DNA from: Lachnospiraceae bacterium
Lineage (GTDB): Bacteria; Bacillota; Clostridia; Lachnospirales; Lachnospiraceae
Direction: 5' to 3'
Assembly: GCA_030526195.1 (NCBI GenBank)
Contig: JAUNDG010000001.1
Location: 214,987-278,986 of the forward strand
DNA length: 64,000 nucleotides
In this document: piece by piece, positions 30,210 through 54,981 of the stretch
How positions within the stretch are numbered: position 1 is the first letter of the stretch
Layout of the letters: every line of letters starts with the position of its first letter
Program-made: the position numbers and the translations under genes
Notes under the pieces: model-generated
The model's database searches: none
Told to the model about the DNA's origin: nothing
The model's input: only the letters and a program-made list of their open reading frames with translations

Positions 30210-30410
30210 TCGCCTGTATATGTGAATCCAGATACGGGTAAAAGGAATCCGGTGTGAATCCGGAGCTCTACCGTGAGCTGTATGGACGGGATCTGTTGCG
30301 TCGGTGAAAGCCGGTCATTGCACGTCAGTGTGAGAAGGCAGCATCAGATTTTTCTTTTGAAGGAAAACCGTCTGAGCCAGAAGACTTGGTAATGTGAGGT
30401 CGTCTTTCGT
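30210..30410 (+). promoter_or_regulatory. Cobalamin-type riboswitch upstream of the surface B12 cluster
   Basis: Conserved elements of the cobalamin riboswitch are recognisable: AAAAGGAATCCGGTGTGAATCC (30240-30261) corresponds to the AAAGGGAA-x-GGTGxGAATCC core, and TGAGCCAGAAGACTTGG (30372-30388) is the B12 box. Between them lie further paired regions (for example CCGGT/GCCGG-type arms near 30300). Limits are approximate. A hairpin (30402-30428) and an intrinsic terminator follow, as expected for transcriptional control: high corrinoid favours termination. It controls a wall protein rather than a biosynthetic gene. The rest of 30011-30653 carries no gene. Confidence 0.87.
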
Positions 30411-30449
30411 CAGGGGATGTCGGAAGACAGTAAGAACACAGGAATAATG

Positions 30450-30488
30450 CGGCTGTGATCATTTTTGATATGATCACAGCTGTTTTTT
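30450..30488 (+). terminator. Expression-platform terminator of the cobalamin riboswitch
   Basis: A 10-bp perfect stem GCTGTGATCA/TGATCACAGC (30452-30461, 30471-30480), extendable by two more pairs, followed by six T at 30483-30488. It lies 165 nt before the start codon. Confidence 0.92.
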
Positions 30489-30653
30489 ATTGCCCGGAAG
30501 TTCCGGCAGAAGCCACTTCATTTCCTTAAGAAAATGAGGCAGTGCAAGCCAAACAATTATGGGCGGTGTCATCACAGACTATTCCTTTCTGACCTTTCAC
30601 TAAGCAGCGATGCAGCTAATTATAGTCTTGGGAAAATGAGAAAGGAGAAAGTG

Positions 30654-33600
30654 ATGAACAAACTCTCAAAGAGACTGATCAGTCTCATCCTGACAGTGTT
30701 CATGATCGTGGCTCTTTTGCCGACCACAGCCTTTGCTTATTACGGCACAGGCGATGCGGTGACCGATTATAAGACGGTTTACCGTGTGGGTCAGAAAGAC
30801 ATTTCCGATGATGACGTTGTCTACATTTCTATCAGTAATGACGACAAATATGTCGTGTCAAACGGGACCGATACCGGGACCGTCATGTCTTATGTGCCGG
30901 TGAAGATCAGCGATCTGGCACAGGTCGATCTGGCTAAGTTCGGCCTTCAGGATTATCTTGTCGAAGCTCCGGCTGAACAGGGTGGTGGTCATCTTGTCAC
31001 AGCCATGCATCTTTTCGTTTATACCCTTGAACAGTACTACCAGGATGGGTGGGAAGTCACGGTGACCGGTAATGCCGGTTCTGCTTATATGCAGAACGGT
31101 TTCTGGGGCCATGATGAAAACCTCACCTACAACGTCAACGGCGAATATCCGCTGGCCGCTGAAAAATGGGGGGCCACTTTCGATACCATCGTGCTTCAGA
31201 AGAATGATTACGTGGACATCACCATGTATTCCGATTGGGATTTCTTCAACGATGAGAATGCCGGTTACCATTATTTCCTGGATGCGTCAGGAGTCGTTAC
31301 TCATGAGTATACGACGGTTGCCGGAACCGGGGTCAACGTGGCCTATGGCCGCGCCAAGACAGATTTTGGCGGTGAATACACCACATCCATGCTTCCCTGT
31401 GCGGGTGAGATCTTTGTGACAACAGCCATGACCGAAGATCCGAGAAACAGCGAAGCGACGGTGATGAGTGTCAATACCGATGCGACCGGCAAAGCCGAGG
31501 TGATGCTTAATGAAGCCGGTACCTATTATCTCTACACTTATGGCGCCACCGGAAATGGTGAAGCCATCGTATCCGGTCCCGCTTATGCGAAGCTCGTTGT
31601 CACAGCTCCCCCCAGACCCGATGAGGTCTTTGCGGATGTGACAGTTCGGGCTCAGGTTGAAAATGCATATCTTTATCCCTTCACAGAGAAACTTCATGTC
31701 AGCAGCTACACTTCTGACATTTTTGGCTACAAAGACAGCAGCGCTGATGTCACAGCTCTGGATGCTCTGATCGCCTATCACAAGGTTCTCTTCGGTGACG
31801 ATTTTACAAAAGAGACAGCTGAGACCTATCTCGTTGTCAGCAGCTCCGGCTGGGTGACCAAGGTCTTTGGTGAAGAGACCTCCGGCATGTCCTTCCTGAT
31901 CAACGGCGGTGCGCCGAATGACGGCACAGAATCCTCCTATGGCGGTTATAACGGCCTGCTGATCAACCAGGCTACCCTTGCCAATGATGACATTGTGGAT
32001 ATTTTCCTGTATGCCGCAGAGGGCGGGTATGCCGATTACATGACCTACGTGTCTGTACCGGAAGATACCATCTATGTGGACAGCGATATCATCGTCAAGG
32101 TGGACGGTATCGGTGTCATGAACGGTTATCTGTATCAGACTCCGGCGGCTATGAAGGCCGCAGCCAATCCGCTGGTTGGTGCCGGTCTTGCCTGGCTCGA
32201 TATTGAAACAGGTACCGTGACACCGATCAAGGAGAGTAATCTGCCTGTTCGGACAGCTGCCAATGGTCAGGCTGTTGTCAAAGCACCGGATACCGCCGGC
32301 ACCTATTACCTGGTGGCTGTGAACGGTGCGGTGGAAGAAACAAATGTATTCACCGTGATGAATCCCACAGCCGTCACCGTGGCTCTGGCTCCGGAAGTTT
32401 TTGCCGATGTCACAGTGCGGACACAGGCTGAAAACGTTTATCTGATGCCCTTCGACAGCAAGCTGCATGTCAGCTCTCATGCTGCTGAAGAGAAAGGCTA
32501 CAAGGATGTTTCCGGTAGCGTCACAGCCGTTGACGTTCTGGTCGCCGCTCACAGCGAGATGTTCGGTGATGAGTTTGACACGAACCCGAAGAATTACCTG
32601 GATGTGTCAGCTTCAGGCTGGGTGACCAAGATTTTCGGTCAGTCAGCTGACATGGCCCTCTATAAAAATGGTTGGGCGCCCAATGACGGCACCGAATCTT
32701 CTTATGGCGGTTATAACGGTCTTCTGGTCACACAGATCACCGTGACTGACAATGATGTGCTGGATGTGATGTTCTATTCAAAGGACGCCACCTGGACTGA
32801 TTATTATACCTACATCACACCGGTGACAGAAAAGGTGATGGCCGGTGAAGATGTGACAGTGAAGGTAACCGGTTATATGGCCTGCTTCGAAGGCTCAAAT
32901 TATCTCACACCGGAAGCCGCAGCCGCCTGCAATAAGCCGGTGGTCGGTGCCGCACTGGCCTTTGTGGATCCCACATCCGGTGAAGTCGGGGCTCCCATCA
33001 AGGTCAATGACAAGGTTGTGCTCACAGATGCTAAGGGTGAGGCTACCTTCAAGATGCCGGCCGAAGTCGATGACTACTATCTGACAGCCATTTCCTACGT
33101 CAGTGAGGATGAGGATGTCGATGATATCGCTGTCTTCATGAATCCGGTCAAGCTGGAAGCCGGCGAAGTGACTGACGGCTTCAACACCATCACCATCAAT
33201 GCCGTTCCGTCAACTGTTGACGTGACCTTCTACAGCGATGCCGATGCTTCCGTTAAGGTGCAGAAGTCTCGTGTGAAGGATAACGGTGTCGTGGATGGGG
33301 CTCATCAGTATGTGCTGACAGTGCCGGATGGCACCTACAGCTACAGAGCCGAAGATGGTGACGTGGACCTGGGCGGTATGTCCTTCTCACTGCCGATTCC
33401 GGAAAATGTCACCACAACAGAAGATAACACGGTCATGAAGCTTGTCCGTGTGAACTGGTACACCGCTAATAAGAGTGTCGCCAATATCGGTGATTACGAA
33501 CTGACAGTAAATGCCGGTGCTGAAAAGGTTACAACCGGCGGCCAGTATAAAGACAGCAGCAACCGTATTGTCACACCGGGTATGGTATGGGCCTACGGCA

Positions 33601-36600
33601 ATGCCAAGCTTTACAACTGGTCATATAAACTGAACGGTGAGCTTGCCGCAAGCTATGGCGTGGTGCCGGCCGTCAATCAGACCTTTGCCACAACCCTGAC
33701 AGCAACACAGAATAAGACATTCTCTCTGTCAGCCTTAAAGACATTTACGGTCGTGGCTCCGGCCGATGCCGAAACCAAGATCTTCTATCAGCTCAACAAC
33801 TTTAACACCATCGAGCTGACAGATGTGGTGGCCACACCCAACGATGACGGCACTGTTTCCTACGTGGCCTCTTACCCGGCCTTCGCCAATGCCAGCTACC
33901 GTGTATCAAAGGCAGGCTGCCGCACAGAAGCCGGTTATGCCAAGGACAACGCCATTCAGGTTGTCACCTTCGATGAATCCGCATCACCCGCTGACAGCAC
34001 AAGCACTTTCACCTTCGGCGATGACAGATCCGTCTTCATGAATGTGGGTGACAGCATCTTTACCAACAATGAACTGGCCATGAGCGTCGGCGAAACCTTC
34101 CGTCTGAAAGCCTACAGAGGTTGGGAAATCGTCAACACCGTGACCTCCAATATCATGATCGAACCGGATTTCCACGTGAACGTCCTGAGCGGCGCTGATG
34201 TCATCGACATCAAACCGGTGGAAAATGCCGGCGGCAATGCCAGGAATAACTGGATGGATATCACAGCCCTGAAAGAAGGGACCGCTGTTGTATCCGTCAG
34301 CTATGACGCCATCAACATCGGTGGCAATACCACCATCGGTGCCGTCTTCGGTGCTTCCGATCCGGCCAGAAACGGTGTCTTCGTCGTCAATGTCGGCTCA
34401 GATGCCAAGGTTGAGGTCACACCGGTCTGCAGCGACGACAACTGGGATTCCGAATTTGATACTGTCTTCTTCACAGGCGACAGCACAACCTTCAGCTTTG
34501 CCGCTGATGCCACAGCCGTTTCCGTTATGAACGTTTACGGCAATGAGATGGGTGCCGCCCAGGCCGGCACACAGGCCGATGGTCTGTGGACAGTGCCGAT
34601 CACAGAAGGCGCCAACATCATCACACTGAATTCAGCCGCAGGTACCGATTATCTGGTGGTACGCGGCAAGAAGCTGGCCATCACGCTGACCAATAACACA
34701 ACCGAGCAGTCATCCACAAATCCGGCTGAGGTCGAGATCAATGTGGGCGACGAGATCAGCATCACCTTCAACAGCCTGGTCAACCCGATTCCGAAGATGT
34801 CCGGCATCTACAATCCGGGTTACATGAATACGGTCAAGACAACCTATACACTCAATGATGCCTTCAAGCTTCAGAGCAAGGGCGCTCAGTATAACTACAA
34901 GCTGGAGGCAAACAGCAGCCTGACCTTCAAGGCTCTGGTGCCGGGTGAAAACAAGCTGAGCAGCGGTTACATCGACGAAACCTCTATGGGTAATGCGATC
35001 GGTGACCACCGCAACATCAGCGATCTTGGCGTGGCAGCCAACTTCAATGCTTCCGCTGTTCCGTATAAGTCCTGTATCCTGCCGGATATCACCTTCACCG
35101 TTAAGGAAGGTGAGACCGAGGTCGATAAGTCTGAATGGACAAAGATCAATAAGGTCAGCCTGTATGCCGGCCCCAGCGCTTATATGACAGGCTTCAAGTT
35201 CAACCAGACGTCAGCAACAGCGGTTAAAGACAATAACGCCACAAACTGGACACAGCTGACGGATGCCATGGGCAACTATTATCTGGGCGCTACCGTGACA
35301 GCCGCTTCCTACTACAACACCATCGTGATGACCTACTGGTATGACGGCGGCGAAAAGGAAAATGTCGAGCTGACCAGCGGCGCAGAGGCCATTGTCAAAA
35401 AGCCGCTTTTCGCAGCTGATGGCGATAAGGTCCTCAACATTCAGATCACCATCACCGCCGGTGACGGTTCTGAAAGCCGGACGCTCAATTACGTGGTCTA
35501 TCCGGGTAAAGCCAACCTTCAGTATGTCCATCCGATCATCGGCAGCCTGACCGCCAGAAGCGAAGAGGATGCCGAAGCAGAAGTGGTCTGCGAAATGGGT
35601 CATGCCTGGAACTACACAGAAACTGATTACACCATGGATATCGGCACAGCACAGGATCTGACCTTCACAGCCGCCATGGTCCAGAAGTACACAAATGCCA
35701 CTAGTAAGACTCAGGATAATTCCGATGCTGTTACCCTTGTGGGCATCAAGAACGGTGAGCCGGTTGGCGAACCTGTCCTGGTACAGGCCGGTGCTGACTT
35801 CCCGACAGGCAGCTGGACTTATGAACTGAAGGATGCCGATCAGCTTGATGGCATTCAGCTGACAGTTGTTTCTTACGTCAGAGAAGATGCCGCAAGAACC
35901 TACAACGTGACCTTCACTGACTCCTGCGAGGCCGATCGTCATGATTGGGAAACAGAACTGTCTTATGATGCGCCGCCGTGTCTTGAAAACTGCACGAAGT
36001 CCATTCGCTGCAAGAACTGCGATATCGTCCGTCATACAGAACCGGTAGAAGAGCTTCTGCCGCATAAGGATGACAACAGCGATGATGTCTGCGATTACTG
36101 CGACGGCCTGCTGTATGCCAAGATCAAACTGGCCGGCAGCAGCCGCTGGGAAACAGCCGCTGCGATCGCCGAAGCCGCTTATCCGGACGGCGCTGACGAG
36201 ATCATCGTTGTGACCGGTCAGAAGTTCCCGGATGCTCTGGCAGCCAATGCTTATGCCGGTGCCAAGGATGCACCGATCATCCTGACAAAGGACAGCGGTC
36301 TGCCGGCAGCGATCAAGAAACTCCTCAAGACAACCTGGGGCGGCAAAGTGACAAAGGCCACCATCATCGGCGGCACCATCACCACAAACGTTCTGAAGGA
36401 TCTGGATGACTGCGGTGTTGAAAACATCAACATGAGTCTGACAAGAGGTACCGATCGTTATCAGACAGCAGAACTTATCTGCACAAAGGGTCTTAACACA
36501 GGTCTCTTCTCAACCGATACGGTTATCCTGACAACCGGTAAGAAGGCTGCTGACGCTCTGTCAGTCTCCTCCTGGAGTAATACATACCGTCTGCCGATCC

Positions 36601-37124
36601 TCCTGACAAAGGGTGACGGCTCCATGACAAAACGGACTCAGGAACTGGTTGGCAAGTTCGAGAATGTTATCGTTCTTGGCGGTTGCACAACTGAAAAGAA
36701 GATCACAGCCTGTGGTGTGAAAGCTTCCGCTATCACCATGCTGAAGGGTAGTGATCGTTATGAAACATCCCTGAAGATCGCCGAATTCTTCATGAACAAT
36801 GAAGCCTACGGCAACGGCACACTGTCTCTTGAAAATGCCTGCATTGCCAGAGGCGCTGATGCCAACTTCCCGGATGCTCTGGCCGGCGGTATGTTAGCCG
36901 GTCTTAGCCAGACACCGGTCATCCTGGTCAGCAACACATCTGACAAGGTCTACAAGAGTCTGGAAGAAGCCTGCAAGGACGGGAAGCCGACCGGCATCTG
37001 TCTCCTGGGTGCTGCTACCGATGACACCATCGTCAGCAAGGTGACAAAGGCCACCGGTATTAAGCCGACCGTTGATCTGAAAGAGTTCAATGAACGCTTC
37101 ATTTTCAGAGACCTTCAGGAGTAA
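30654..37124 (+). CDS. Giant CWB2-anchored surface protein with repeated transcobalamin-like (DUF4430) modules
   Basis: A 2156-aa secreted protein. The start at 30654 follows AAAGGAGA; a signal peptide ends TTAFA. At about residues 60-305, 325-580 and 583-845 lie three DUF4430-like modules. The latter two are clear internal duplicates (FADVTVR-x-Q-x-EN-x-YL-x-PF; SSGWVTK; NDGTESSYGGYNGLL). In human intrinsic factor this fold is the C-terminal B12-binding domain. Beta-rich Ig-like regions follow (about 850-1750), then a Cys-rich segment with CKNC and CDYC, and three PF04122 cell-wall-binding repeats (about 1822-2150; LAGSSRWETAAAIAEAAYP). It is under cobalamin riboswitch control. Role inferred: corrinoid capture at the wall. 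Confidence 0.83.
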   Translation: MNKLSKRLISLILTVFMIVALLPTTAFAYYGTGDAVTDYKTVYRVGQKDISDDDVVYISISNDDKYVVSNGTDTGTVMSYVPVKISDLAQVDLAKFGLQDYLVEAPAEQGGGHLVTAMHLFVYTLEQYYQDGWEVTVTGNAGSAYMQNGFWGHDENLTYNVNGEYPLAAEKWGATFDTIVLQKNDYVDITMYSDWDFFNDENAGYHYFLDASGVVTHEYTTVAGTGVNVAYGRAKTDFGGEYTTSMLPCAGEIFVTTAMTEDPRNSEATVMSVNTDATGKAEVMLNEAGTYYLYTYGATGNGEAIVSGPAYAKLVVTAPPRPDEVFADVTVRAQVENAYLYPFTEKLHVSSYTSDIFGYKDSSADVTALDALIAYHKVLFGDDFTKETAETYLVVSSSGWVTKVFGEETSGMSFLINGGAPNDGTESSYGGYNGLLINQATLANDDIVDIFLYAAEGGYADYMTYVSVPEDTIYVDSDIIVKVDGIGVMNGYLYQTPAAMKAAANPLVGAGLAWLDIETGTVTPIKESNLPVRTAANGQAVVKAPDTAGTYYLVAVNGAVEETNVFTVMNPTAVTVALAPEVFADVTVRTQAENVYLMPFDSKLHVSSHAAEEKGYKDVSGSVTAVDVLVAAHSEMFGDEFDTNPKNYLDVSASGWVTKIFGQSADMALYKNGWAPNDGTESSYGGYNGLLVTQITVTDNDVLDVMFYSKDATWTDYYTYITPVTEKVMAGEDVTVKVTGYMACFEGSNYLTPEAAAACNKPVVGAALAFVDPTSGEVGAPIKVNDKVVLTDAKGEATFKMPAEVDDYYLTAISYVSEDEDVDDIAVFMNPVKLEAGEVTDGFNTITINAVPSTVDVTFYSDADASVKVQKSRVKDNGVVDGAHQYVLTVPDGTYSYRAEDGDVDLGGMSFSLPIPENVTTTEDNTVMKLVRVNWYTANKSVANIGDYELTVNAGAEKVTTGGQYKDSSNRIVTPGMVWAYGNAKLYNWSYKLNGELAASYGVVPAVNQTFATTLTATQNKTFSLSALKTFTVVAPADAETKIFYQLNNFNTIELTDVVATPNDDGTVSYVASYPAFANASYRVSKAGCRTEAGYAKDNAIQVVTFDESASPADSTSTFTFGDDRSVFMNVGDSIFTNNELAMSVGETFRLKAYRGWEIVNTVTSNIMIEPDFHVNVLSGADVIDIKPVENAGGNARNNWMDITALKEGTAVVSVSYDAINIGGNTTIGAVFGASDPARNGVFVVNVGSDAKVEVTPVCSDDNWDSEFDTVFFTGDSTTFSFAADATAVSVMNVYGNEMGAAQAGTQADGLWTVPITEGANIITLNSAAGTDYLVVRGKKLAITLTNNTTEQSSTNPAEVEINVGDEISITFNSLVNPIPKMSGIYNPGYMNTVKTTYTLNDAFKLQSKGAQYNYKLEANSSLTFKALVPGENKLSSGYIDETSMGNAIGDHRNISDLGVAANFNASAVPYKSCILPDITFTVKEGETEVDKSEWTKINKVSLYAGPSAYMTGFKFNQTSATAVKDNNATNWTQLTDAMGNYYLGATVTAASYYNTIVMTYWYDGGEKENVELTSGAEAIVKKPLFAADGDKVLNIQITITAGDGSESRTLNYVVYPGKANLQYVHPIIGSLTARSEEDAEAEVVCEMGHAWNYTETDYTMDIGTAQDLTFTAAMVQKYTNATSKTQDNSDAVTLVGIKNGEPVGEPVLVQAGADFPTGSWTYELKDADQLDGIQLTVVSYVREDAARTYNVTFTDSCEADRHDWETELSYDAPPCLENCTKSIRCKNCDIVRHTEPVEELLPHKDDNSDDVCDYCDGLLYAKIKLAGSSRWETAAAIAEAAYPDGADEIIVVTGQKFPDALAANAYAGAKDAPIILTKDSGLPAAIKKLLKTTWGGKVTKATIIGGTITTNVLKDLDDCGVENINMSLTRGTDRYQTAELICTKGLNTGLFSTDTVILTTGKKAADALSVSSWSNTYRLPILLTKGDGSMTKRTQELVGKFENVIVLGGCTTEKKITACGVKASAITMLKGSDRYETSLKIAEFFMNNEAYGNGTLSLENACIARGADANFPDALAGGMLAGLSQTPVILVSNTSDKVYKSLEEACKDGKPTGICLLGAATDDTIVSKVTKATGIKPTVDLKEFNERFIFRDLQE

Positions 37125-37185
37125 CAGGGAAAATGGCCGCTTACGGGCGGCATGAGCTAAAAATCAATCACACGCTTATATGAAC

Positions 37186-37213
37186 GGGCAGGGCCTCTCG
37201 GAAGGCCCTGTCC
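37186..37213 (+). terminator. Strong hairpin 13 nt before the DUF4430 lipoprotein start
   Basis: GGGCAGGGCCT pairs with AGGCCCTGTCC (11 bp, one G-U) with a 6-nt loop, followed by ACCCTTTAATTTT. It could terminate part of the giant-protein transcript or act as an mRNA stabiliser. It leaves no room for a normal ribosome site before ATG 37227. Confidence 0.65.
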
Positions 37214-37226
37214 ACCCTTTAATTTT

Positions 37227-37796
37227 ATGAAAAGATTAAAATCAATCAGAAAAATCTCATATCTGTTATTAACGTTGACTGTTATCTGCGGTTTGCTGGC
37301 CGGCTGCGGCACCTCCATGGATGCCTCCGGCAGCGGCGAAGAGGCCAACCATTTTTATGTGGAAAATGAAAGCGGGGCTCATACCTGCACCATGGCCATT
37401 TCCTGCACCGCAGTTCTTGATAATATGGATCAGTTTGCCGCTAAGAAGAAAGCTTTTGTGCCTCAGGACGGCATTTTACTGGCGGAAACCACTGTGGCCT
37501 TCGAAGAGGGGGACACGGTTTATGATGTGCTGACAGCCACCTGTCAGAAGGCCGGCATTTTAATGGAAGCGGCTTACACCCCGCTGTACGGCTCCTATTA
37601 TGTGGAGGGTATCAACCAGCTGTACGAATTTGACGGCGGCGAGCTGTCCGGCTGGACCTATCGCGTGAACGGAGAGTATCTCAATTATGGGGCTTCCTCA
37701 GTGAAGGTGGCAGACGGCGATAAGATCGAATGGCTCTACACCTGCGACCTGGGCCGCGATGTGGGCAATACAGCTGTTGGAGAGACAACAAAATGA
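37227..37796 (+). CDS. Transcobalamin-like (DUF4430) lipoprotein
   Basis: A 189-aa lipoprotein: Lys/Arg-rich start, hydrophobic segment, lipobox LLAGC, then a short linker and one complete DUF4430 domain (about residues 85-185). Diagnostic segments are EGDTVYDVLTATCQKAGI, SGWTYRVNGEYLNYGASS and VADGDKIEWLYTCDLGRDVG, the usual end of this domain. It would be tethered to the outer face of the membrane next to the ECF transporter, whose EcfT gene overlaps its stop (ATGA). I infer a membrane-proximal corrinoid receptor. No Shine-Dalgarno is seen; a hairpin abuts the start. Confidence 0.85.
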   Translation: MKRLKSIRKISYLLLTLTVICGLLAGCGTSMDASGSGEEANHFYVENESGAHTCTMAISCTAVLDNMDQFAAKKKAFVPQDGILLAETTVAFEEGDTVYDVLTATCQKAGILMEAAYTPLYGSYYVEGINQLYEFDGGELSGWTYRVNGEYLNYGASSVKVADGDKIEWLYTCDLGRDVGNTAVGETTK

Positions 37797-38731
37797 AGCA
37801 TACCGATGCCTTCGGAGACTGCCATCCGGCAGTCTCGTTCCTGTTTTTTATGACGGTGATCCTGATCACCATGTTTTTGAACCATCCGGCGGTCATTTTC
37901 CTGTCCTTTGGCGGTGGCATCTGTTATGCCGCCCACGTGAGGGGATGGCGGACGGTTCTGAAGCGCCATTTGCTGCTGAGCCTGCCGCTGATGCTGGTGT
38001 TTGCCCTGATCAATCCCCTGTTTAACCACTACGGGGTGACGGTGCTTTTTTACCTCAACGGGATGGCCATCACCCTGGAGGCTGTCATTTACGGCCTGGT
38101 GCTGACGGCAAAGCTTTTCACCTCCATCATCTGGTTTGACGGCATGAATGCCGTGATGACCACGGACAAATTTGTGTATCTCTTTGGCCGCGTGGTGCCG
38201 TCGCTGGCGCTGGTGCTGTCCATGGCCTTCCGCTTTGTGCCCCGGTTCACCCGGCAGATGGGGATCATCCGCAACACCCAGAAGTGCCTCGGCCGGGACA
38301 TTTCCACAGGAAAATGGTACGAGCGGCTGCGGGCCGGTGTGCGGGTCCTGTCGATCCTCATCACCTGGGCTCTCGAAAATGCGGTGGATACTTCGGATTC
38401 CATGAAGGCCCGGGGTCACGGTCTGCCGGGCCGGTCAGCCTTTTCCATCTTTAAGTTTTCAAAGCGGGATGCCCTGATGCTGATCATTTTCCCGGTGCTT
38501 CTGGTGCTGGTGCTGATCGGTGGTCTCCGGGGAGCCCTGTACGCCTCCTTCAATCCGAAGATCATGATCGGCGGTGCCTGCCCCTTGCCGGTGGCCGTCG
38601 GCGCCTTCATTTGCTGGGGCCTTTTCTGTTTCGTGCCAATCCTGCTGGGTCTAAAGGAAGATATGACCTTCCGGTATCTGCAGACCCACAGAGGCCGGGA
38701 TGGTGCCGCCATCTGGTATATGAATAAATAA
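37793..38731 (+). CDS. ecfT: ECF transporter transmembrane component EcfT
   Basis: A 312-aa membrane coupling protein (PF02361). Hydrophobic segments lie at both ends; the cytoplasmic coupling helices carry the signature SMKARGHG (A-R-G motif contacting the ATPases), and the first motif appears around RFVPRFTRQMGIIRNTQ. The start at 37793 overlaps the lipoprotein stop; 21 upstream in-frame codons are dropped because they lie in the preceding gene. With the ATPase and S component next to it, this is a dedicated (group I) ECF transporter. Confidence 0.92.
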   Translation: MKHTDAFGDCHPAVSFLFFMTVILITMFLNHPAVIFLSFGGGICYAAHVRGWRTVLKRHLLLSLPLMLVFALINPLFNHYGVTVLFYLNGMAITLEAVIYGLVLTAKLFTSIIWFDGMNAVMTTDKFVYLFGRVVPSLALVLSMAFRFVPRFTRQMGIIRNTQKCLGRDISTGKWYERLRAGVRVLSILITWALENAVDTSDSMKARGHGLPGRSAFSIFKFSKRDALMLIIFPVLLVLVLIGGLRGALYASFNPKIMIGGACPLPVAVGAFICWGLFCFVPILLGLKEDMTFRYLQTHRGRDGAAIWYMNK

Positions 38732-41631: not shown

Positions 41632-41647
41632 ACGGAGAGAGATCAAC

Positions 41648-43552: not shown

Positions 43553-43602
43553 TCGGTGCAACTGCTGACAATCCATGAAACCATGAAAGCATGAGGTTAT
43601 GC

Positions 43603-47010: not shown

Positions 47011-47020
47011 GAGTGTTTGC

Positions 47021-49258
47021 ATGAAAATGGGACAGATTTCTCTGACCATAACGAGCGTCAGGGCGGAGAGACGCGATCTTAAAGAGCGCCTCCTGTCCTG
47101 TGGCCTGTGTCTTTTGATGGCCGTGGCCCTGACGGAGATTCCGGCTGCAGCCTGGCATCTGACAGACATGACACCGCTGCGCTTCATCGCTTATGTCGCC
47201 GCGGCGGCGGTCATAGCGGCCATTTTGCTGCCGGATCTTTCCGATAAAAAGACACGCCTTATGCTCACAGCCACAGCGGTGGGACTGGTCATCCTTTTCA
47301 TCATCCTCACCGCCACGGGCACCTTGTCCCTGTCCATGGGACGGCTGATGAATCAGATCCTGGAGAGTCGGTATCTGCGCACCGGCTATTATGCGGTGCC
47401 TTATGCCGCCGCCGGCAGCGGCCTTCTGGCCCTGTCTCTCATGGAAATGATCATCGGCGGCCTCTGCGCCCTTCTGATGAAAATGAAGCTGCGGGGCGCC
47501 GTTCTGGTGCTGCCGGCCCTCATGGTGATCCTGGGCGGCATCGATATCCTGCCGGTGAACGGCTGGTATGTGGTGTTTGGCGCTGCCTGTCTTCTGATGA
47601 TGGCCGCCATGACCGGCATTTCACCCAAAGCGGTGGGCATGGCCGCGGCCGGTCTCATCATCGTGTCATTGGTGCTGGGTCTTGTGATGGCCCCCGTGAG
47701 CGGTCTGGCCAAAGCGCGGCAGTCACTGGACAAGCAGGTGCATAAGCTCACAAAAGAAAATAGCGTCATGGCCATGCCGGAGGGTAACCTGAAGGATCTT
47801 AAGGCCTTTGAGCCTACCGATGCCCCGGCGCTGCTGGTGGATATGGACACCTGGACCGGGACCTACATCCGCGGGTTTGTGGGGGGCACTTACAAAGACA
47901 GCACCTGGCAGAGCTTGTCCCCGGAAGATCTCCGGGAGGAAGCGGCCACGCTCTACGTGTTGCAAAGAGATGCCTTCTTTGGCAGTACCCAGTACGGCAA
48001 CCTGTGGAACAGTTCAGATCTTGAGGCTACCGATTTAGTATATGAAGATAACCGCATCACGGTGCGGCCGGACGGAGCCTGTCGGGCCTTCACGTATCTG
48101 CCCTACGGCATTTCCGATGAGGCGGCGCCGGACCTTGATCCCCATGCCATCACCACGGAAGGCGACGCCGGCCGGATGAGCGGGGTGACGGGAAATCTGG
48201 CCCCAATAGAGGCGGCGTACCTGTTGCTCGGTACCCTGGCTGACGGCTCAGTGCAGGCGGACGAGGCGTACCTTACGGCGGAAGAGCATTACCGCGATTA
48301 TGTGTACACCCATTTCCTGGACGTGCCGGAGGAGGTTCTGACAGCCCTGTCTGAAGCCGGTCTTACCGGTTCGACAGGCATCTCCACCACTCAGGCCCGG
48401 AAGGAGATCCGGGAGGCTTTGAAGCTTTTCATGACCTATGATGAAAGTGCGGTGACCTTAAACGGCAGCCGCGATTTCCTGGCGTATCTGTGTGATGTGA
48501 ACCCGCGGGGGTATTCCGTTCATTATGCCTCACTGGCCACCATGATGCTCCGCACCTACGGCATTCCCGCCCGCTATGTGGAGGGCTATGTGGTGACGCA
48601 GGATCGGGCCGGGCGTCAGGCTGAGGGGGAAGCTATGGTGCTGACCCAGAAAAACAGCCGGGCCTTCGTGGAATTCTATCTCGACGGCATCGGCTGGCTG
48701 CCCTTTGATCCCACACCGGGCTACGAAGCGGAGATCTACTATGAACTGCCCCAGGGGCAGGGCATGGCGGATAACACGCCGGGCAACACCAGCCTTGAAG
48801 AACTTCAGGAGGAAAATGAGCCTGAAAATGAACAGAAGACGGTGAATGTGCAGGAGGAGGATGACGGATCCCGCCGACCGGTGGGCCTTAATCTTCACGA
48901 GGTGCTGATCTTAAGTCTTCTGATCCTGCTGGGGTGTCTTGTGCTTTACGGCATTTACATTTACCAGAAACGGCAGTATCTCAGGAGACGCCGCCTTTTC
49001 ATGAAAGAAGGGGAGGTGCGTCGGGCCACCGGCTATATCCTGGCGGATACCTGTCGCCTGCAGGAGGCCGCGGGTCAGGAGATCCCGGCGGAGCAGGACC
49101 GCTTCATGAAGGAGCTGTGGTTCAGCCGCCATGCTGTCAGTGAAGAGCAGCGGCAAAACGCCCTTCAGGGTCTGGAAAAGGCTGAAGCGGATTGGCGGAC
49201 ACAGTTACCGCTTTGGAAACGGATTGTCCATCGCTTTATCAAAGGCGATGTGTATTAA
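47021..49258 (+). CDS. TgpA-like transglutaminase-fold membrane protein, catalytic residues lost
   Basis: A 745-aa membrane protein: about six hydrophobic segments (residues about 25-240), an extracellular transglutaminase-like domain (about 430-570), a C-terminal transmembrane segment (about 625-646) and a charged cytoplasmic tail. In active family members the core reads GYCxHFAS and HAWVE...DPTP. Here it reads GYSVHYASLATMMLRTYGIP and NSRAFVEFYLDGIGWLPFDP, so the nucleophile Cys is Ser and the His is Arg, while the Asp is kept. It is probably a pseudo-enzyme used for binding or assembly. Third member of the MoxR-DUF58-Tgase triad; the next gene follows within 15 nt. Confidence 0.87.
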   Translation: MKMGQISLTITSVRAERRDLKERLLSCGLCLLMAVALTEIPAAAWHLTDMTPLRFIAYVAAAAVIAAILLPDLSDKKTRLMLTATAVGLVILFIILTATGTLSLSMGRLMNQILESRYLRTGYYAVPYAAAGSGLLALSLMEMIIGGLCALLMKMKLRGAVLVLPALMVILGGIDILPVNGWYVVFGAACLLMMAAMTGISPKAVGMAAAGLIIVSLVLGLVMAPVSGLAKARQSLDKQVHKLTKENSVMAMPEGNLKDLKAFEPTDAPALLVDMDTWTGTYIRGFVGGTYKDSTWQSLSPEDLREEAATLYVLQRDAFFGSTQYGNLWNSSDLEATDLVYEDNRITVRPDGACRAFTYLPYGISDEAAPDLDPHAITTEGDAGRMSGVTGNLAPIEAAYLLLGTLADGSVQADEAYLTAEEHYRDYVYTHFLDVPEEVLTALSEAGLTGSTGISTTQARKEIREALKLFMTYDESAVTLNGSRDFLAYLCDVNPRGYSVHYASLATMMLRTYGIPARYVEGYVVTQDRAGRQAEGEAMVLTQKNSRAFVEFYLDGIGWLPFDPTPGYEAEIYYELPQGQGMADNTPGNTSLEELQEENEPENEQKTVNVQEEDDGSRRPVGLNLHEVLILSLLILLGCLVLYGIYIYQKRQYLRRRRLFMKEGEVRRATGYILADTCRLQEAAGQEIPAEQDRFMKELWFSRHAVSEEQRQNALQGLEKAEADWRTQLPLWKRIVHRFIKGDVY

Positions 49259-49272
49259 AAGGAGGCGAAGCT

Positions 49273-52200
49273 ATGAAAAAGAAGAGCCTGATCAAGCAGA
49301 CGGCCGGTCGTGTGGCCGCCGGTATCCTGACAGCAGCGATGGTTCTGACTCAGGTGCCGACGGGGCTTATGACCGTGCTGGCGGATGAAGAACCGGTCAA
49401 CACTGCTGTGACAGCACCCGCCGATCTGTCAAACGAAGATGATGACGCGACTGCTGGCGGTGCCACCGAAACGGATCGTGACGGCGCTCCGGCTGATGAG
49501 ACCGATCCGACTGTCGCAGCGGGTAACACAGAACCAGGAACTGATGACACTCAGCTCAGGACACCGGAGGAACAGCCGGCGTCTGACGACTCGGTATCAG
49601 CTGACAGCCTGAATGAGACATCAGCGTCTGATACCGATGAGACCACCGGGGACGAGGCCGATGACACCAACGGCGAGGCTGAGGAACTGAAGCTCCTGTG
49701 GTCACCCATGGATGATTCGGCGCTGGAAAATCAGTTTGCCCTGGCGGTGGTGACCGACGAGACAGTGGTGATCGCCCCAACACTCATTTCCTTCGAAAAT
49801 GAGATGACGGCGGCCCAGGCACTCCTGGCGACAGACCATACCTTTACCGGCCTTGCCAACGGTGAGTTTATTACCGCCGTTGATGATGTGGCAGGGAGCT
49901 ACGTGCTTGCTTACACCGAGGGCGGTTATGACCTTGAAGCCTCAGCCGCCGGCGTGAAGGGCCTTTTCATGACCACCGATACCGCCTTTGTGTATGACGA
50001 TATGGTCCGGGATCTGGTGATCGAGATGGCGCTTTTCAACAGCCGGACCGACGGCCGGATTGAGGATGCCCTCTGCCGGAGCGCCTATGAGGCCGCCCTT
50101 GATGGGCTTTACGGCATTGATAAAACAAAGGCCGGTGAAAAACTGCTGGCTCTTCAGACAGCCGAAAAGGATTATGAAGATTATATGAGCGGTAACAGCT
50201 TTGCCGTTGATTTTGCCCTGACACTGAACGACAGCCCGGTGACACCGGCCTATATCGAGGCCACGGACAGCCGGGGTGGTGTCACTCGGGGTGACAATGT
50301 GAACACGCTGAATCTGAAAAAGGGCAGCTACACCTATGTCACAACAGACGGCAACGGCCGCTTTATCCGCGGCAGCTTTACCGTGGAGGCGGCCACCCGC
50401 GTGAGCGCTGCCTTCCAGGAACAGCTGTGGATCGACAAGGTGTCCCTGGGCACCGCTTCTCAGTGGGCGGCGGGGGATGCCGTGGCCAGCCGGGCGCTGC
50501 CTGAAGGCAGTACGGATAAAGGCGCCATCTATGTGGTGCCGGATCATGCGGGCCCGAATCTCTATCCCTACATTGAACCCACAGCCGGGACTCCCACAAC
50601 CGGCACCGGCGCTGTCAGTGTGTTCTTCGGGAACAGCACCGCCAGAGCCTGGAAGAGCCGCAGCACGTCTTTGGTGAGCGCCATCGTTCAGGACAATCTG
50701 GCTGACCGGGATGTGGTGCTGGAAGCCCGCTATAAGACCAATCCCCATGAGGCTGAGCAGTATGAACAGTACGAAGAGTGGCATTTGCAGATCCATCGTG
50801 CGCCGACACTGACGAATCTTGAAATCTCAGATGCCATCAATCCGCTGATCATGGTGCGGGATGATGAGAGCCTTGGCTTTGACAGAACAGCCCGTCGCTA
50901 TCGGGTCACCACCACCGAACGCCTTGTCAATCTGAACATTGCCATGCCCACCGGCGCTCAGGCCAAGATCGGCAAGACTGTGATCCGGAACAACCTGGCA
51001 GAAGTGCCCCTGGTGGGCTTTATGAAAAATGACAACGAGGCGGAAATTCCGCTGGATGTGTATCTGCCGGATGGTGAAACCACCACTTACACCATTTGCG
51101 TGACAGTGCTGGAACCGGCTTACGTGTGTATCACGGGTGTCGATACGCTGACCTGGGAAGTCCGGGACGCCGCCGGTCAGGTCATGCAGCCCACAGATCA
51201 GGAAATGGGCATCTACACCCTCCATGCGGGCGAATCCTACACACTGGATTGTCTGGCGGAGACCTATTTCCACTGCCGTCAGACCTTTACGGCGGAAAAT
51301 AATCTGGCTCTGACAGCGGCCTATCCGGAGACGGTGAGCCACTTAAAGGAACTGAGTGCCCGTCAGTCCTCCGGTGTGGCGGCTTCAGCCTATGCCATGA
51401 TGCCGACATTTAAGAAAGACGTTCATGAATATGACATCAAGGTGGGCTCCACCGTGGCCGTCTTCTATCTGAAGGCGCTGGCCGACAGCGGTTATAAGGT
51501 GGAGGCCATCTGGAAAAACCTGGGCACCGGGAAAATGACTACCCTGAAGCTCAATACCGGCTATGCTAACCTGGCCAACGTGGTGCGCCAGAGCGGTCTC
51601 ACCTCCCCCATTACGCTGCGGGTGACAAAGGAAGCCGTCGAAAATGGTCTGGAGCAGTATCAGGAATATCTCCTGACCGCCAGCCGTCTCATGCAGCTGA
51701 GCACCCTGAAGGTGAAGAATGGTGAGAAGGAGATCCAGATGGCGGCCCGGGATGAAGCCGGGACAGCCGGTTTTGTGAAAACCACGCTGGATTATGAGGT
51801 GAAGGTGTCCGATAAGACAACAGCCCTGGCCCTTGATGTGACCCCCTTAACCAGCATCAACGGCAATGATAATGCCATGACCGTCACCTGTGAGAACACC
51901 GGTGAGGTCCTCACCTACGACGAAACCCATCTGCCGCATCAGGTGCGCACCCTTGAGGTAGCCCTGGATCCGACGAAGTCAGAGGAAACGCTGATCCTGA
52001 CCGTGGGTCACAGCGATCCCCTGGCCACAACGCAGCGCTACACCGTTCTGGTGAAAAAACTGCCGGCGGTGAAGACTACCGTCTCCGTTTCACCGGCGGA
52101 GGCCGATGCGGTGGTCTTTATGGAATCCGATGATGAAAAGCTGCACATCCTGCCGGGTGAAGACGGATTCTATGAACTGGATGCTTCCCGGTCCTACACC

Positions 52201-54981
52201 TGCACGGTGACAGCCCCGGGCTATATTGCCGCCACGCAGACATTTGTGGCTTCCGATAAGACAACAGCCATCACCTTTACACTCGAAAAAGCAGCGGAAA
52301 GCAGCTTCAAAGACATTTCCGGTGAAAAGGACTGGCCCTCCTTCCGGGGTGGCGGTGACAACAACACCGTTATCGATGCCCCGTCCATGACAGAGGCTGA
52401 CAAGACCATGCTGCTCTGGGCCAACCAGATCGGCGAAGGCTACAGCTCCGGTGCTGTGGGCTGCCCCATCATTGTGGGGGATTATCTTTACACCTATGCG
52501 GGCAAATCCATCGTGAAGGTGGATAAGCGCACCGGCGAGGTGGTGGCCAGCGGCCTTATGGCGGCCAGCTCCTCATTTGCCATCAACGCCCCGACCTATG
52601 CGGCGGGCATGATCTTTGTGGGTCTGTCAAACGGCCGTCTTCAGGCCTTTAACGCCGAGACCCTGACACCGCTGTGGCTTTACACCGATGCCAGAGGCGG
52701 CCAGCCCAACTGCGAGCTGACCTATCGGAACGGCTATCTCTACACCGGCTTCTGGAATTCCGAGTCCGGTAAACCGGCTCATTACGTGGCCATTGATGTT
52801 ACCGATGAATATCCGGATCGACCGGATGAAGAGAAGAAGGCCACCTGGACCTACACCGACAACGGGTTCTACTGGGCCGGGGCCTATGCCACCGATCGTT
52901 TCCTGCTGGTGACAACAGATGACGGTGAGGCCGGTTATACCACCGGTCATGGTTCCGTCGTTTCTCTTGATCCCAAGACCGGGGCCGTGATCGACAAGGT
53001 CACTGCCACAGGCGTGGGGGATCTGCGCAGCAGTGTCTGCTATGACAAGGTGACCAATGCCTATTACTTCACCAGCAAGGGCGGTCATTTCTATCAGATC
53101 CGTGTGAATGAAGACGGCACCTTCGTGCCGGATTCCATGAGATCCATTACACTCAGTAACGGGTCGGGCAATCCCCAGACACCGGCCATGAGTACCTCAA
53201 CACCGGTCATTCACAATGGCCGGGCCTATGTGGGTGTGTCCGGCACCAGCCAGTTCACCCCCTACACCGGTCATAACATCACCGTCATCGATCTGGCCTC
53301 CTGGCAGATCGCCTACAGCGTGCCGACCCAGGGTTATCCCCAGACCAGCGGTGTTGTGACCACAGCCTACGAGGCCGCCACGGAATATGTCTATGTGTAC
53401 TTCTTTGACAACTACACACCGGGCAAACTCCGTGTCATCCGGGATAAGGCCGGTCAGACGGAAATGGACCACACCTACAGCACCATGGAAACCTATACCT
53501 CCGGCGGTGTGACCAAGACCTATGAAACCGGCTATGTGCTCTTCACACCTCACGGGGCACAGGCTCAGTACGCCATCTGCAGTCCGATTATGGACAGCGA
53601 GGGCAACATTTACTTCAAAAATGATTCCGGCTACATGATGTGTCTTACCAATACCATCGACAAGCTGCAGCTGGATGAAAAGCCGACCCGCACCAACTAC
53701 TGCATCGGCACGCAGTTTGATCCGAAGGGCATGACGCTCTCAGCCATCACCGGCACCGGCATCAAGACCGATATCACAGCCTATGCGGGTTACACCACGG
53801 AACCGCTGACCGCTGACGATACGGAGATCACCCTGACCTACGATCTTGCGAAGCTTCAGACAGGCGAAAAGGGCTTCTGGGCGCTTTACCAGAATAAAGA
53901 CGGCGAAGCCGGCGTGCCGGTGGATCTGCCCACCGTGTCTTTGGACATCACCCTGCAGGAGCATGCGGATAAAAACCGGGACGGCAAGTGCGACAATTGC
54001 GGTACCCCCATGGAAGTGAAGGAGAAGCTTTTCTCACTGGCGGGTGATTCCCGTTACACCACCGCCGCCAAGGTGGCGGCCACCGCCTTCCCGGCGGGCA
54101 GCGAACCCTCCTGCGCGGTGCTGGTCACCGGGGCTAATTTCCCGGATGCCCTCTCAGCCAATGCGCTGGCCGGCTCTCTTGACTGTCCGCTCATTATGAC
54201 GAATCTGACGAAGCTGGCGGATGCCACAGCCGACCTCCTCAAAAATACCTGGGGCGGCAGCGTCAAGACCGTCTATGTGGTGGGCGGCGGCTTCAGCGAT
54301 GCCGTTTTCAACAGCCTGAAGGCCTGCGGTGTCACGAAGGTTGACAGCAACACCTATAAAGGCAAGGATCGTTACGACACAGCCGAAAAGGTCTGCAAGG
54401 GCTATCTGGCCATGGGCGGCAGCAAAGACAGCGTGATCGTGGCCACCGGTCTTACACCGGCGGATGCTCTGTCCATCAGCTCCTGGAGCTACCGGTATCA
54501 GATCCCGATCCTGCTGGCCAATAAATACGGCGATCTGCGGGATTCCTCCAAGGCGCTTCTTAAGCAGTTTGGTCACGTGTACATCGTGGGTGCCGAAAGC
54601 TGCTGTCGGATGGAGGCTCTGACAGGTGCCGGTATTGTGCCGGATAAGATCACACGTCTGGCCGGCAGTAACCGATACGAAACATCCGCGGCCATCGCCA
54701 CCTATTTCCTGGATAAATATCCGGGTCGCACCGGCAATGTGAGCCGTGTGGTCATGGCCAAGGGCGCCAATGCCAACTATCCGGATGCTCTGGTGGGCGG
54801 CATGCTGGCCGGCCGGGGCGACGGGGCTCCCGTCATTCTGGTGGGCGCCGGCACAAGCTCCGATGTGACCTATAAGCTGATGCGGGAACGCATCAAGAAT
54901 AGCGAAGGCCCCGGCTATATCCTCGGGGCAGCGGCTCAGGACACCGCGATCGTGAATAAGATCAGGGCCTCCGCCGACTGA
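49273..54981 (+). CDS. Giant CWB2-anchored surface protein with PQQ-like propeller region
   Basis: A 1902-aa secreted protein; AAAAGGAGG precedes ATG 49273. A signal peptide ends MTVLA. An acidic Asp/Thr/Ala stretch (about 38-140) leads to beta-rich modules, a cadherin-like sandwich region (about 690-930) and a PEGA-like domain (about 933-1005). A PQQ/WD-type beta-propeller-like region follows (about 1060-1455; SIVKVDKRTGEVVASGL, GRLQAFNAETLTPLWLY), then an Ig-like domain (about 1470-1560) and DKNRDGKCDNC. Three PF04122 cell-wall-binding repeats (about 1584-1902) close the protein. It is the last gene of the cluster and the second wall-bound giant. Ligand unknown; by context possibly corrinoid or a partner protein. 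Confidence 0.8.
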   Translation: MKKKSLIKQTAGRVAAGILTAAMVLTQVPTGLMTVLADEEPVNTAVTAPADLSNEDDDATAGGATETDRDGAPADETDPTVAAGNTEPGTDDTQLRTPEEQPASDDSVSADSLNETSASDTDETTGDEADDTNGEAEELKLLWSPMDDSALENQFALAVVTDETVVIAPTLISFENEMTAAQALLATDHTFTGLANGEFITAVDDVAGSYVLAYTEGGYDLEASAAGVKGLFMTTDTAFVYDDMVRDLVIEMALFNSRTDGRIEDALCRSAYEAALDGLYGIDKTKAGEKLLALQTAEKDYEDYMSGNSFAVDFALTLNDSPVTPAYIEATDSRGGVTRGDNVNTLNLKKGSYTYVTTDGNGRFIRGSFTVEAATRVSAAFQEQLWIDKVSLGTASQWAAGDAVASRALPEGSTDKGAIYVVPDHAGPNLYPYIEPTAGTPTTGTGAVSVFFGNSTARAWKSRSTSLVSAIVQDNLADRDVVLEARYKTNPHEAEQYEQYEEWHLQIHRAPTLTNLEISDAINPLIMVRDDESLGFDRTARRYRVTTTERLVNLNIAMPTGAQAKIGKTVIRNNLAEVPLVGFMKNDNEAEIPLDVYLPDGETTTYTICVTVLEPAYVCITGVDTLTWEVRDAAGQVMQPTDQEMGIYTLHAGESYTLDCLAETYFHCRQTFTAENNLALTAAYPETVSHLKELSARQSSGVAASAYAMMPTFKKDVHEYDIKVGSTVAVFYLKALADSGYKVEAIWKNLGTGKMTTLKLNTGYANLANVVRQSGLTSPITLRVTKEAVENGLEQYQEYLLTASRLMQLSTLKVKNGEKEIQMAARDEAGTAGFVKTTLDYEVKVSDKTTALALDVTPLTSINGNDNAMTVTCENTGEVLTYDETHLPHQVRTLEVALDPTKSEETLILTVGHSDPLATTQRYTVLVKKLPAVKTTVSVSPAEADAVVFMESDDEKLHILPGEDGFYELDASRSYTCTVTAPGYIAATQTFVASDKTTAITFTLEKAAESSFKDISGEKDWPSFRGGGDNNTVIDAPSMTEADKTMLLWANQIGEGYSSGAVGCPIIVGDYLYTYAGKSIVKVDKRTGEVVASGLMAASSSFAINAPTYAAGMIFVGLSNGRLQAFNAETLTPLWLYTDARGGQPNCELTYRNGYLYTGFWNSESGKPAHYVAIDVTDEYPDRPDEEKKATWTYTDNGFYWAGAYATDRFLLVTTDDGEAGYTTGHGSVVSLDPKTGAVIDKVTATGVGDLRSSVCYDKVTNAYYFTSKGGHFYQIRVNEDGTFVPDSMRSITLSNGSGNPQTPAMSTSTPVIHNGRAYVGVSGTSQFTPYTGHNITVIDLASWQIAYSVPTQGYPQTSGVVTTAYEAATEYVYVYFFDNYTPGKLRVIRDKAGQTEMDHTYSTMETYTSGGVTKTYETGYVLFTPHGAQAQYAICSPIMDSEGNIYFKNDSGYMMCLTNTIDKLQLDEKPTRTNYCIGTQFDPKGMTLSAITGTGIKTDITAYAGYTTEPLTADDTEITLTYDLAKLQTGEKGFWALYQNKDGEAGVPVDLPTVSLDITLQEHADKNRDGKCDNCGTPMEVKEKLFSLAGDSRYTTAAKVAATAFPAGSEPSCAVLVTGANFPDALSANALAGSLDCPLIMTNLTKLADATADLLKNTWGGSVKTVYVVGGGFSDAVFNSLKACGVTKVDSNTYKGKDRYDTAEKVCKGYLAMGGSKDSVIVATGLTPADALSISSWSYRYQIPILLANKYGDLRDSSKALLKQFGHVYIVGAESCCRMEALTGAGIVPDKITRLAGSNRYETSAAIATYFLDKYPGRTGNVSRVVMAKGANANYPDALVGGMLAGRGDGAPVILVGAGTSSDVTYKLMRERIKNSEGPGYILGAAAQDTAIVNKIRASAD

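What the first reader, a model, noticed from the sequence alone, without database searches (positions are those of the whole stretch)
30210..54981. Candidate surface corrinoid (B12) capture-and-relay system under a cobalamin riboswitch
Seen: a cobalamin-type riboswitch and terminator are followed by eleven + strand genes. They encode a wall-bound giant with repeated DUF4430-like modules, a DUF4430 lipoprotein, EcfT, fused EcfA-A', an S component, an anchored DUF4430 protein, a toroid protein, MoxR, DUF58, a transglutaminase-fold protein and a second wall-bound giant. Known: DUF4430 is the C-terminal fold of human intrinsic factor/transcobalamin, and ECF transporters import vitamins including cobalamin. 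Inferred: corrinoid is captured at the wall, passed to membrane-tethered receptors and then to the ECF transporter, a Gram-positive counterpart of BtuB/BtuF-type uptake. The breadth of the cluster, with wall, lipid-anchored, membrane and assembly parts, is not something I recognise as described.
Basis: partly seen in the sequence, partly recalled or inferred. Interest (0 to 1): 0.88.

Follow-up and report, generated by a model that had tools for sequence, protein, structure and literature searches.

The report
Bacterial surface vitamin-B12 capture and import operon
This eleven-gene bacterial operon sits behind a vitamin-B12-sensing RNA switch and most likely catches B12-type molecules at the cell surface and pumps them in; the core idea was predicted in 2007, but the attached ATPase module with an apparently enzyme-dead transglutaminase looks new.

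Summary
A Cobalamin riboswitch (30194-30404, 56.2 bits) and a terminator precede eleven + strand genes. The S component's best solved relative is CbrT, the ECF vitamin-B12 S component (profile E 3.8e-17; next RibU 7.5e-4). In 40 related genomes picked for strong DUF4430 hits, 35 loci carry DUF4430, EcfT, EcfA and S together, and 24 genomes have a cobalamin riboswitch within 12 kb upstream (0.25 expected). Corrinoid import with surface capture is well supported. Its core (transcobalamin-like domains, toroid, CbiO/CbiQ, B12 scavenging) was proposed in 2007 (PMC1796856).

What looks new is the MoxR-DUF58-transglutaminase module: it recurs beside this cassette in Lachnospiraceae, Bacillaceae and a Coriobacteriaceae MAG. 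All 15 distinct cluster transglutaminases lack the catalytic cysteine and lie on one side of a supported branch; 12 related domains outside clusters keep it. They are predicted pseudo-enzymes, perhaps scaffolds for surface receptors. The module is rare overall (2 of 40 loci).

Against a simple scavenger story: this genome carries corrin-ring genes and BtuFCD-like genes.

The parts
30194..30404 (+). Cobalamin riboswitch aptamer (RF00174)
   Evidence: 56.2 bits, E 2.9e-11
30449..30483 (+). intrinsic terminator after the riboswitch, likely the expression platform
   Evidence: 14-pair stem then T tail
30654..37124 (+). g1: wall-bound giant, signal peptide, DUF4430-like modules, C-terminal CWB2 triplet (ORF open from 30534)
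   Evidence: CWB2 127.9 bits; start read from sequence
30789..31268 (+). g1 DUF4430-like module 0
   Evidence: HHalign against DUF4430 E 5.5e-7; controls 0.16 or worse
31635..33140 (+). g1 tandem modules 1 and 2 (31635-32369, 32406-33140), suggestively DUF4430-like
   Evidence: 45% identical to each other; HHalign against DUF4430 E 1.2e-4
37227..37796 (+). g2: DUF4430 lipoprotein (lipobox LAGC)
   Evidence: PF14478 71.8 bits; lipobox pattern
37793..38731 (+). g3: EcfT (ORF open from 37730)
   Evidence: CbiQ 24.7 bits, just under cut-off 25; TIGR02454 E 8.9e-8, under its cut-off
38750..40705 (+). g4: fused EcfA-EcfA' ATPase
   Evidence: two ABC_tran stretches; TIGR04520 329.4 bits, over cut-off 315
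40702..41631 (+). g5: S component, CbrT-like, with N-terminal extension of about 130 aa
   Evidence: 6fnp_A E 2.1e-7; profile 3.8e-17 against RibU 7.5e-4
41621..43552 (+). g6: protein with N-terminal hydrophobic anchor and C-terminal DUF4430
   Evidence: DUF4430 profile 44.5 bits at aa 440-492; HHalign E 2.7e-11; hydropathy
43591..44979 (+). g7: secreted alpha/alpha toroid with C-terminal hydrophobic anchor
   Evidence: alignment profile hits squalene-cyclase-like chains E 7.3e-15; PF00432 in 11 of 12 aligned members at E up to 1, the window one 0.0097; hydropathy
44972..45910 (+). g8: MoxR AAA+ ATPase, Walker A and B present by eye
   Evidence: AAA_3 E 2e-55; sequence printed
45907..47010 (+). 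g9: DUF58 protein
   Evidence: 31.7 bits, cut-off 23.4
47021..49258 (+). g10: polytopic membrane pseudo-transglutaminase (Ser499 in the Cys column, Arg547 in the His column, Asp563 in the acidic column)
   Evidence: Transglut_core 62.2 bits; columns
49273..54981 (+). g11: second wall-bound giant with propeller-like region and CWB2 triplet (ORF open from 49192)
   Evidence: CWB2 137.4 bits, PQQ_2 33.1 bits
52330..53652 (+). g11 conserved propeller-like region
   Evidence: PQQ_2; 36-57% identity to 10 relatives
55106..55133 (+). likely operon-end terminator
   Evidence: 12-pair stem

Best explanation
It is a riboswitch-controlled corrinoid (B12-family) capture and import operon. When corrinoid is scarce, the riboswitch lets transcription pass the terminator. 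The cell then makes two wall-bound giants (one with DUF4430-like modules, one with a propeller-like region), a DUF4430 lipoprotein, an anchored DUF4430 protein and an anchored alpha/alpha toroid. Toroid and DUF4430 together resemble the two halves of animal transcobalamin and probably hold the corrinoid between them (inferred). The CbrT-like S component with EcfT and fused EcfA-A' pumps it inward using ATP (inferred by homology). MoxR and DUF58, with a transglutaminase that seems catalytically dead, probably assemble, anchor or remodel the surface receptors rather than cross-link anything (inferred from linkage, Walker motifs and the missing cysteine). Shown here: the gene set, the riboswitch, the homologies and their recurrent linkage. 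Inferred: ligand binding, the relay order and the role of the MoxR module.
For: Riboswitch and terminator. S component: CbrT 6fnp_A is the only confident PDB match (6FNP is the ECF-CbrT entry, PMC5997447 passages) and leads the profile search, E 3.8e-17 against RibU 7.5e-4. DUF4430 occurs in 123 of 294 genomes of the order. Of 40 DUF4430-selected loci, 35 carry D, EcfT, EcfA and S together and 31 the toroid; in 15 comparison loci EcfT 0, S 1, EcfA 4. 24 of 40 genomes have a cobalamin riboswitch at most 12 kb upstream on the same strand, expected 0.25. CbiD is rarer with DUF4430: 44 of 123 DUF4430 genomes against 94 of 171 others, odds ratio 0.46, p 0.0014. MoxR-DUF58-TG genes lie in the same stretch as DUF4430 in 12 of 17 named relatives (MoxR itself seen in 11 of the 12); 2 of those 12 (L109, L116) hold proteins identical to query rows. 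Of 13 named loci scanned, 5 have a gathering-level cobalamin riboswitch.
Against: The genome carries corrin-ring genes (CbiD, CobB and a CbiJ/E/T fusion over cut-off; CbiK and CbiG below it) and BtuF-, BtuC- and BtuD-like genes, so scavenging is not obviously needed. The DUF4430 profile finds no transcobalamin chain in the PDB, so that kinship rests on PMC1796856 and recalled Pfam/InterPro naming. The toroid resembles squalene cyclases more than cobalamin binders; PF01122 was hit by 1 of 12 members, E 0.022. 16 of 40 survey genomes show no nearby riboswitch. 8 of 13 named loci scanned lack a gathering-level one; six of these rescanned gave weak ones in three and none in three. MoxR is in only 2 of 40 DUF4430-selected loci. 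The operon is patchy in its own genus: the toroid was found in 4 of 37 same-genus genomes. No binding or expression data.
Confidence: 0.8

Rival explanations
1. The system imports a corrinoid precursor or remnant (cobinamide, cobyrinate) or a special cobamide instead of B12 itself, feeding the cell's own late synthesis steps.
For: The genome has corrin-ring genes and BtuF-, BtuC- and BtuD-like genes, so a second uptake system may have another specificity; CbrT carries cobinamide as well (PMC5997447 passages); 44 of 123 DUF4430 genomes have CbiD.
Against: Nothing in the sequence separates this from B12 uptake; DUF4430 is commoner where CbiD is absent.
Confidence: 0.3
2. It imports a non-corrinoid cofactor or metal and is merely repressed by corrinoid.
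For: Pfam and NCBIfam label the S component loosely as riboflavin or folate type; EcfT resembles CbiQ of cobalt systems.
Against: CbrT leads RibU by about 13 orders of magnitude in the profile search; the riboswitch linkage recurs across genomes.
Confidence: 0.08
3. The MoxR-DUF58-TG genes and giant 2 are a separate surface-protein operon that happens to be read through.
For: The trio occurs without DUF4430 or toroid in 14 of 14 loci L159-L172; it also lies with a surface FN3 protein in bifidobacteria (PMC6803598 passages); only 2 of 40 DUF4430-selected loci have it; two Cys-less transglutaminases (L161, L172) lie among the Cys-bearing ones in the tree, so Cys loss is not special to clusters.
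Against: The 15 cluster transglutaminases lie on one side of a supported branch across two phyla (97/89), 15 of 15 without Cys, and gene order around them varies while the linkage stays.
Confidence: 0.25

Closest known systems
Transcobalamin-like SLBB proteins with toroid and CbiO/CbiQ operons (Burroughs et al. 2007, PMC1796856)
   Same: DUF4430/SLBB domain, alpha/alpha toroid, secreted and anchored forms, propeller fusion, paralogous SLBB proteins in one operon, CbiO/CbiQ partners, predicted B12 scavenging
   Different: The part read (section 7 part 1) mentions no cobalamin riboswitch, CbrT-type S component, CWB2 giant or MoxR-DUF58-transglutaminase; toroid and DUF4430 are separate proteins in the window (in one protein in several relatives)
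ECF-CbrT of Lactobacillus delbrueckii (6FNP, PMC5997447)
   Same: S component kinship, EcfT, two ATPase domains
   Different: Here the ATPases are fused, the S component has an N-terminal extension of about 130 aa, and the ECF genes sit with surface capture proteins
BtuG/BtuH/BtuB systems of Bacteroidetes (PMC6977713, PMC8941943, passages)
   Same: Works like: surface capture proteins including a beta-propeller, riboswitch-linked, feeding a B12 importer
   Different: No TonB-type outer-membrane receptor seen in the operon; a sequence search with the propeller region found only weak BamB matches, no BtuG
PFNA operon of bifidobacteria (PMC6803598, passages)
   Same: MoxR, DUF58 and a polytopic transglutaminase-type protein beside a surface protein
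   Different: Has a kinase and FN3 protein; no DUF4430, ECF or riboswitch in the passages seen

Membership tests
ECF transporter | EcfT, two ATPase domains and S component in one operon | tested here: met
   EcfT only just below Pfam cut-off (24.7 against 25), TIGR02454 E 8.9e-8
CbrT cobalamin S components | closest to CbrT among solved S components | tested here: met
   6fnp_A E 3.8e-17, next 3p5n_A 7.5e-4
CbrT cobalamin S components | binds and transports cobalamin or cobinamide | not testable with these tools
   needs binding or uptake assay
Cobalamin riboswitch RF00174 | covariance score above gathering threshold | tested here: met
   56.2 against 31.5 bits
Transcobalamin-like SLBB (DUF4430) | PF14478 above curated cut-off | tested here: met
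   g2 71.8 bits; g6 below cut-off in Pfam (19.2) but supported; giant 1 modules only by HHalign
Transcobalamin-like SLBB (DUF4430) | B12 bound between toroid and SLBB domain | not testable with these tools
Animal transcobalamin / intrinsic factor | sequence match to solved transcobalamin or to PF01122 | tested here: not met
   no such PDB chain listed; PF01122 in 1 of 12 toroids at E 0.022
Transglutaminase enzymes | catalytic Cys and His (triad as recalled) | tested here: not met
   Ser and Arg in g10; Cys absent in 15 of 15 distinct cluster members
MoxR AAA+ ATPases | AAA_3 domain with Walker A and B motifs | tested here: met
   motifs read by eye in the sequence printed
BtuG | sequence kinship to BtuG propellers | tested here: not met
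   one search lists only BamB-type matches, best E 0.045

The most novel reading that the evidence does not exclude
Gram-positive and actinobacterial corrinoid importers have recruited a dedicated ATP-driven receptor-assembly or hand-over machine: a MoxR AAA+ ATPase, a DUF58 protein and a branch of catalytically dead transglutaminases that build, anchor or reset transcobalamin-like surface receptors, a kind of energised surface vitamin capture not described before.
Probability: 0.25. Interest if true: 0.75.

Novelty: new variant of a known kind. Interest (0 to 1): 0.58.

Why it matters
[quoted passage not shown] The linkage found here gives a concrete parts list: capture proteins, a CbrT-like importer and a MoxR module under a cobalamin riboswitch. 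It also makes the 2007 idea that animal B12 binders came from Gram-positive bacteria testable with defined proteins, and gives a specific pseudo-enzyme branch for the little-understood MoxR-DUF58-transglutaminase trio.

Tried and rejected
Sequence links from the toroid and DUF4430 profiles to solved transcobalamin were sought and not found. A link from the propeller to BtuG was sought and not found. A PDB search with one giant-1 module gave nothing convincing. HMM searches did not find DUF4430 in giant 1, and HHalign with one or two module sequences was not convincing; with relatives added it was for the first module. 'Pure scavenging by an auxotroph' was rejected for this genome because of its cbi genes and BtuFCD-like genes. 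'Active transglutaminase cross-links the receptors' was rejected on the missing Cys.

Limits of the counts. The 40 survey genomes were chosen by me from the strongest listed DUF4430 hits (40 of 123), not at random. The gene profiles were seeded with window proteins and trained on the surveyed loci. The 15 comparison loci (L158-L172) are transglutaminase loci without DUF4430 or toroid, so only EcfT, S and EcfA are a real control there. For the Cys count three rows identical to others were removed (L066, L153, L154), L095 (identical to L116) was never entered, and two fragments were set aside (L121, L157). 8 of 20 non-cluster domains also lack Cys (L106, L114, L120, L158, L159, L160, L161, L172). 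The search that found these proteins was seeded with three cluster members, which favours their kin. The tree has long branches and uneven composition; the window protein sits on a long branch with L106, which may be false; 8 of 35 rows carried no label. assumes that, run with the same settings, drew the same 294 genomes, and is not corrected for phylogeny.
Full report
What is there. The window is G000:C39:214987-278986 of a 2.54 Mb genome in 43 contigs. It holds a Cobalamin riboswitch at 30194-30404, a terminator at 30449-30483 and eleven + strand ORFs ending near a terminator at 55106-55133. Family scans identify g1 and g11 (CWB2 triplets), g2 and g6 (DUF4430), g3-g5 (EcfT, fused EcfA-A', S component), g8 (MoxR), g9 (DUF58) and g10 (transglutaminase fold). 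g7 is an alpha/alpha toroid by profile: squalene-cyclase-like PDB chains at E 7.3e-15 and PF00432 in 11 of 12 aligned members at E up to 1. Better starts are 30654 for g1, 37793 for g3 and 49273 for g11, read from the sequence.

Which organism. Two genomes of its family have contigs of the same length as named records (G237:C8 = 135556 bases, Faecalimonas MAG, L116; G370 contigs of 182655 and 91127 bases, Blautia glucerasea, L112 and L111), and their transglutaminases are identical (L095/L116, L153/L112, L154/L111). So the family is most likely Lachnospiraceae (inference). Within its genus the operon is patchy: the toroid was found in 4 of 37 genomes, the window's own included.

Is the ligand a corrinoid? 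The S component matches CbrT (6fnp_A) at E 2.1e-7 alone and 3.8e-17 as a profile of seven; RibU is next at 7.5e-4. 6FNP is the ECF-CbrT entry (PMC5997447, passages). The DUF4430 profile (31 sequences) does not reach any transcobalamin chain, so that kinship rests on PMC1796856 and on naming that I recall. A stretch with consensus LYEFDCGxLSGWMYxVNG is strikingly conserved in this set.

Is the set conserved? DUF4430 is found in 123 of 294 genomes of the order. I took 40 of these with strong hits. 35 of 40 loci have DUF4430, EcfT, EcfA and S together; 31 of 40 have the toroid; 2 of 40 have MoxR, DUF58 and the transglutaminase. Ten more loci were picked by the toroid: 9 of 10 have DUF4430, 5 of 10 EcfT. 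In 15 comparison loci EcfT is 0, S 1, EcfA 4. Cobalamin riboswitches lie at most 12 kb upstream of a DUF4430 gene on the same strand in 24 of 40 genomes, 0.25 expected; 32 of 40 have any in the typed list. In the toroid-picked genomes G002, G026, G040, G044 and G052 a riboswitch also lies roughly 1 to 8 kb upstream of a toroid gene on the same strand (read by eye). Several relatives carry DUF4430 and toroid in one protein, as transcobalamin does.

The MoxR module. A genome-contig scan with the transglutaminase alignment gave 17 named loci. 12 of 17 have DUF4430 genes in the fetched stretch (L107-L113, L115-L119), among them Blautia, Siminovitchia thermophila, Lysinibacillus alkalisoli and a Coriobacteriaceae MAG. 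Of these 12, 12 have DUF58, 11 MoxR, 11 the toroid, 8 EcfT, 7 EcfA, 6 S and 9 the propeller protein; several stretches are cut short. Two of the 12 (L109, L116) carry the query proteins themselves, which leaves 10 of 15. Gathering-level cobalamin riboswitches: L108, L110, L112, L116, L118, that is 5 of 13 scanned (the 12 and L106). A lower threshold on six of the other eight gave sub-threshold AdoCbl or Cobalamin matches upstream in L107, L109 and L119 and none in L111, L113, L117; L106 and L115 were not rescanned. In the Cys column 15 of 15 distinct cluster proteins, window included, have another residue (nine Ser, four Asp, two Ala); 12 of 20 non-cluster domains have Cys (Fisher p 1.8e-4). 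In a maximum-likelihood tree of 35 rows the 15 cluster proteins lie on one side of a branch with support 97/89 and the 12 Cys-bearing domains on the other. Four Cys-less proteins without a cluster in view (L106, L114, L120, L158) lie on the cluster side; L161 and L172, also Cys-less, lie among the Cys-bearing ones. So the branch is strongly, not exclusively, tied to corrinoid clusters, and Cys loss happened elsewhere too. The window protein also lacks the His that the other complete ones keep. Which columns are catalytic I take from recalled transglutaminase motifs.

The propeller. g11 aa 1047-1487 has relatives in 11 of 17 named loci and aligns at 36-57% identity with ten of them. In some relatives one protein carries this region and DUF4430 (L067, L100, L102; L156), as in a clostridial protein noted in PMC1796856. 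BtuG2 of Bacteroides is a surface propeller with femtomolar B12 affinity (PMC6977713, passages); sequence kinship was not found, so this is only 'works like'.

Genome background. The genome has five cobalamin riboswitches. One heads BtuF-, BtuC- and BtuD-like genes and cbi genes (CbiD, CobB and the CbiJ/E/T fusion are over curated cut-offs, BtuC, the ATPase, CbiG and CbiK are below them), one a corrinoid protein and an MtmB-like methyltransferase, one an SBP_bac_5-type ABC transporter; one runs towards a contig end. I did not check the whole cobalamin pathway. Across 294 genomes DUF4430 and CbiD avoid each other mildly (odds ratio 0.46, p 0.0014), which fits scavenging as a trend; this genome has both. 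High demand from corrinoid methyltransferases, or need of a particular cobamide, would explain that (inference).

What is known. PMC1796856 (abstract, passages and section 7 part 1 seen) already proposes B12 scavenging by SLBB-toroid surface proteins with CbiO/CbiQ operons. PMC6593275 (passages) counts CbrT among gut transporters. I found no paper tying MoxR, DUF58 or a transglutaminase to cobalamin uptake: searches. The one hit for MoxR plus cobalamin plus transglutaminase is an iron-response study of Caulobacter (search listing only). The library lacks most subscription journals.

Verdict. Ordinary in its core, new in its accessory module. I hold corrinoid import at 0.8 and the dedicated assembly machine at 0.25. 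The relay order is untested.

Noticed in passing
L023:2800-12863 (G000:C23): A strong cobalamin riboswitch (120.3 bits) directly precedes a corrinoid protein and an MtmB-like monomethylamine methyltransferase; a second such pair follows. Both MtmB-like ORFs are open without an internal stop, so they seem not to use an amber codon.
   Followed up: partly
L026 (G000:C4:18000-32000): Cobalamin riboswitch ahead of a long BtuF-like protein (562 aa), BtuC- and BtuD-like genes and cbi genes, including a CbiJ/CbiE/CbiT fusion.
   Followed up: partly
L024 (G000:C2:1-9000): Cobalamin riboswitch ahead of an SBP_bac_5/oligo_HPY ABC transporter, perhaps for nickel, cobalt or peptides.
   Followed up: no
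G000, whole genome: 84 CWB2 domain matches, so wall anchoring by CWB2 domains is a general habit of this organism.
   Followed up: no
L108:5800-5964: A TwoAYGGAY RNA (RF01731, 86.8 bits) lies between a cobalamin riboswitch and a DUF4430 gene.
   Followed up: no
L111:6508-6654: A sub-threshold Clostridiales-1 RNA match (35.7 bits, cut-off 48) ahead of the MoxR gene of the cluster.
   Followed up: no
L160:1-11020 and L159:2916-11332: Cys-less transglutaminases with MoxR-DUF58 beside other large ORFs (2183 and 1324 aa) without DUF4430 or toroid hits.
   Followed up: no
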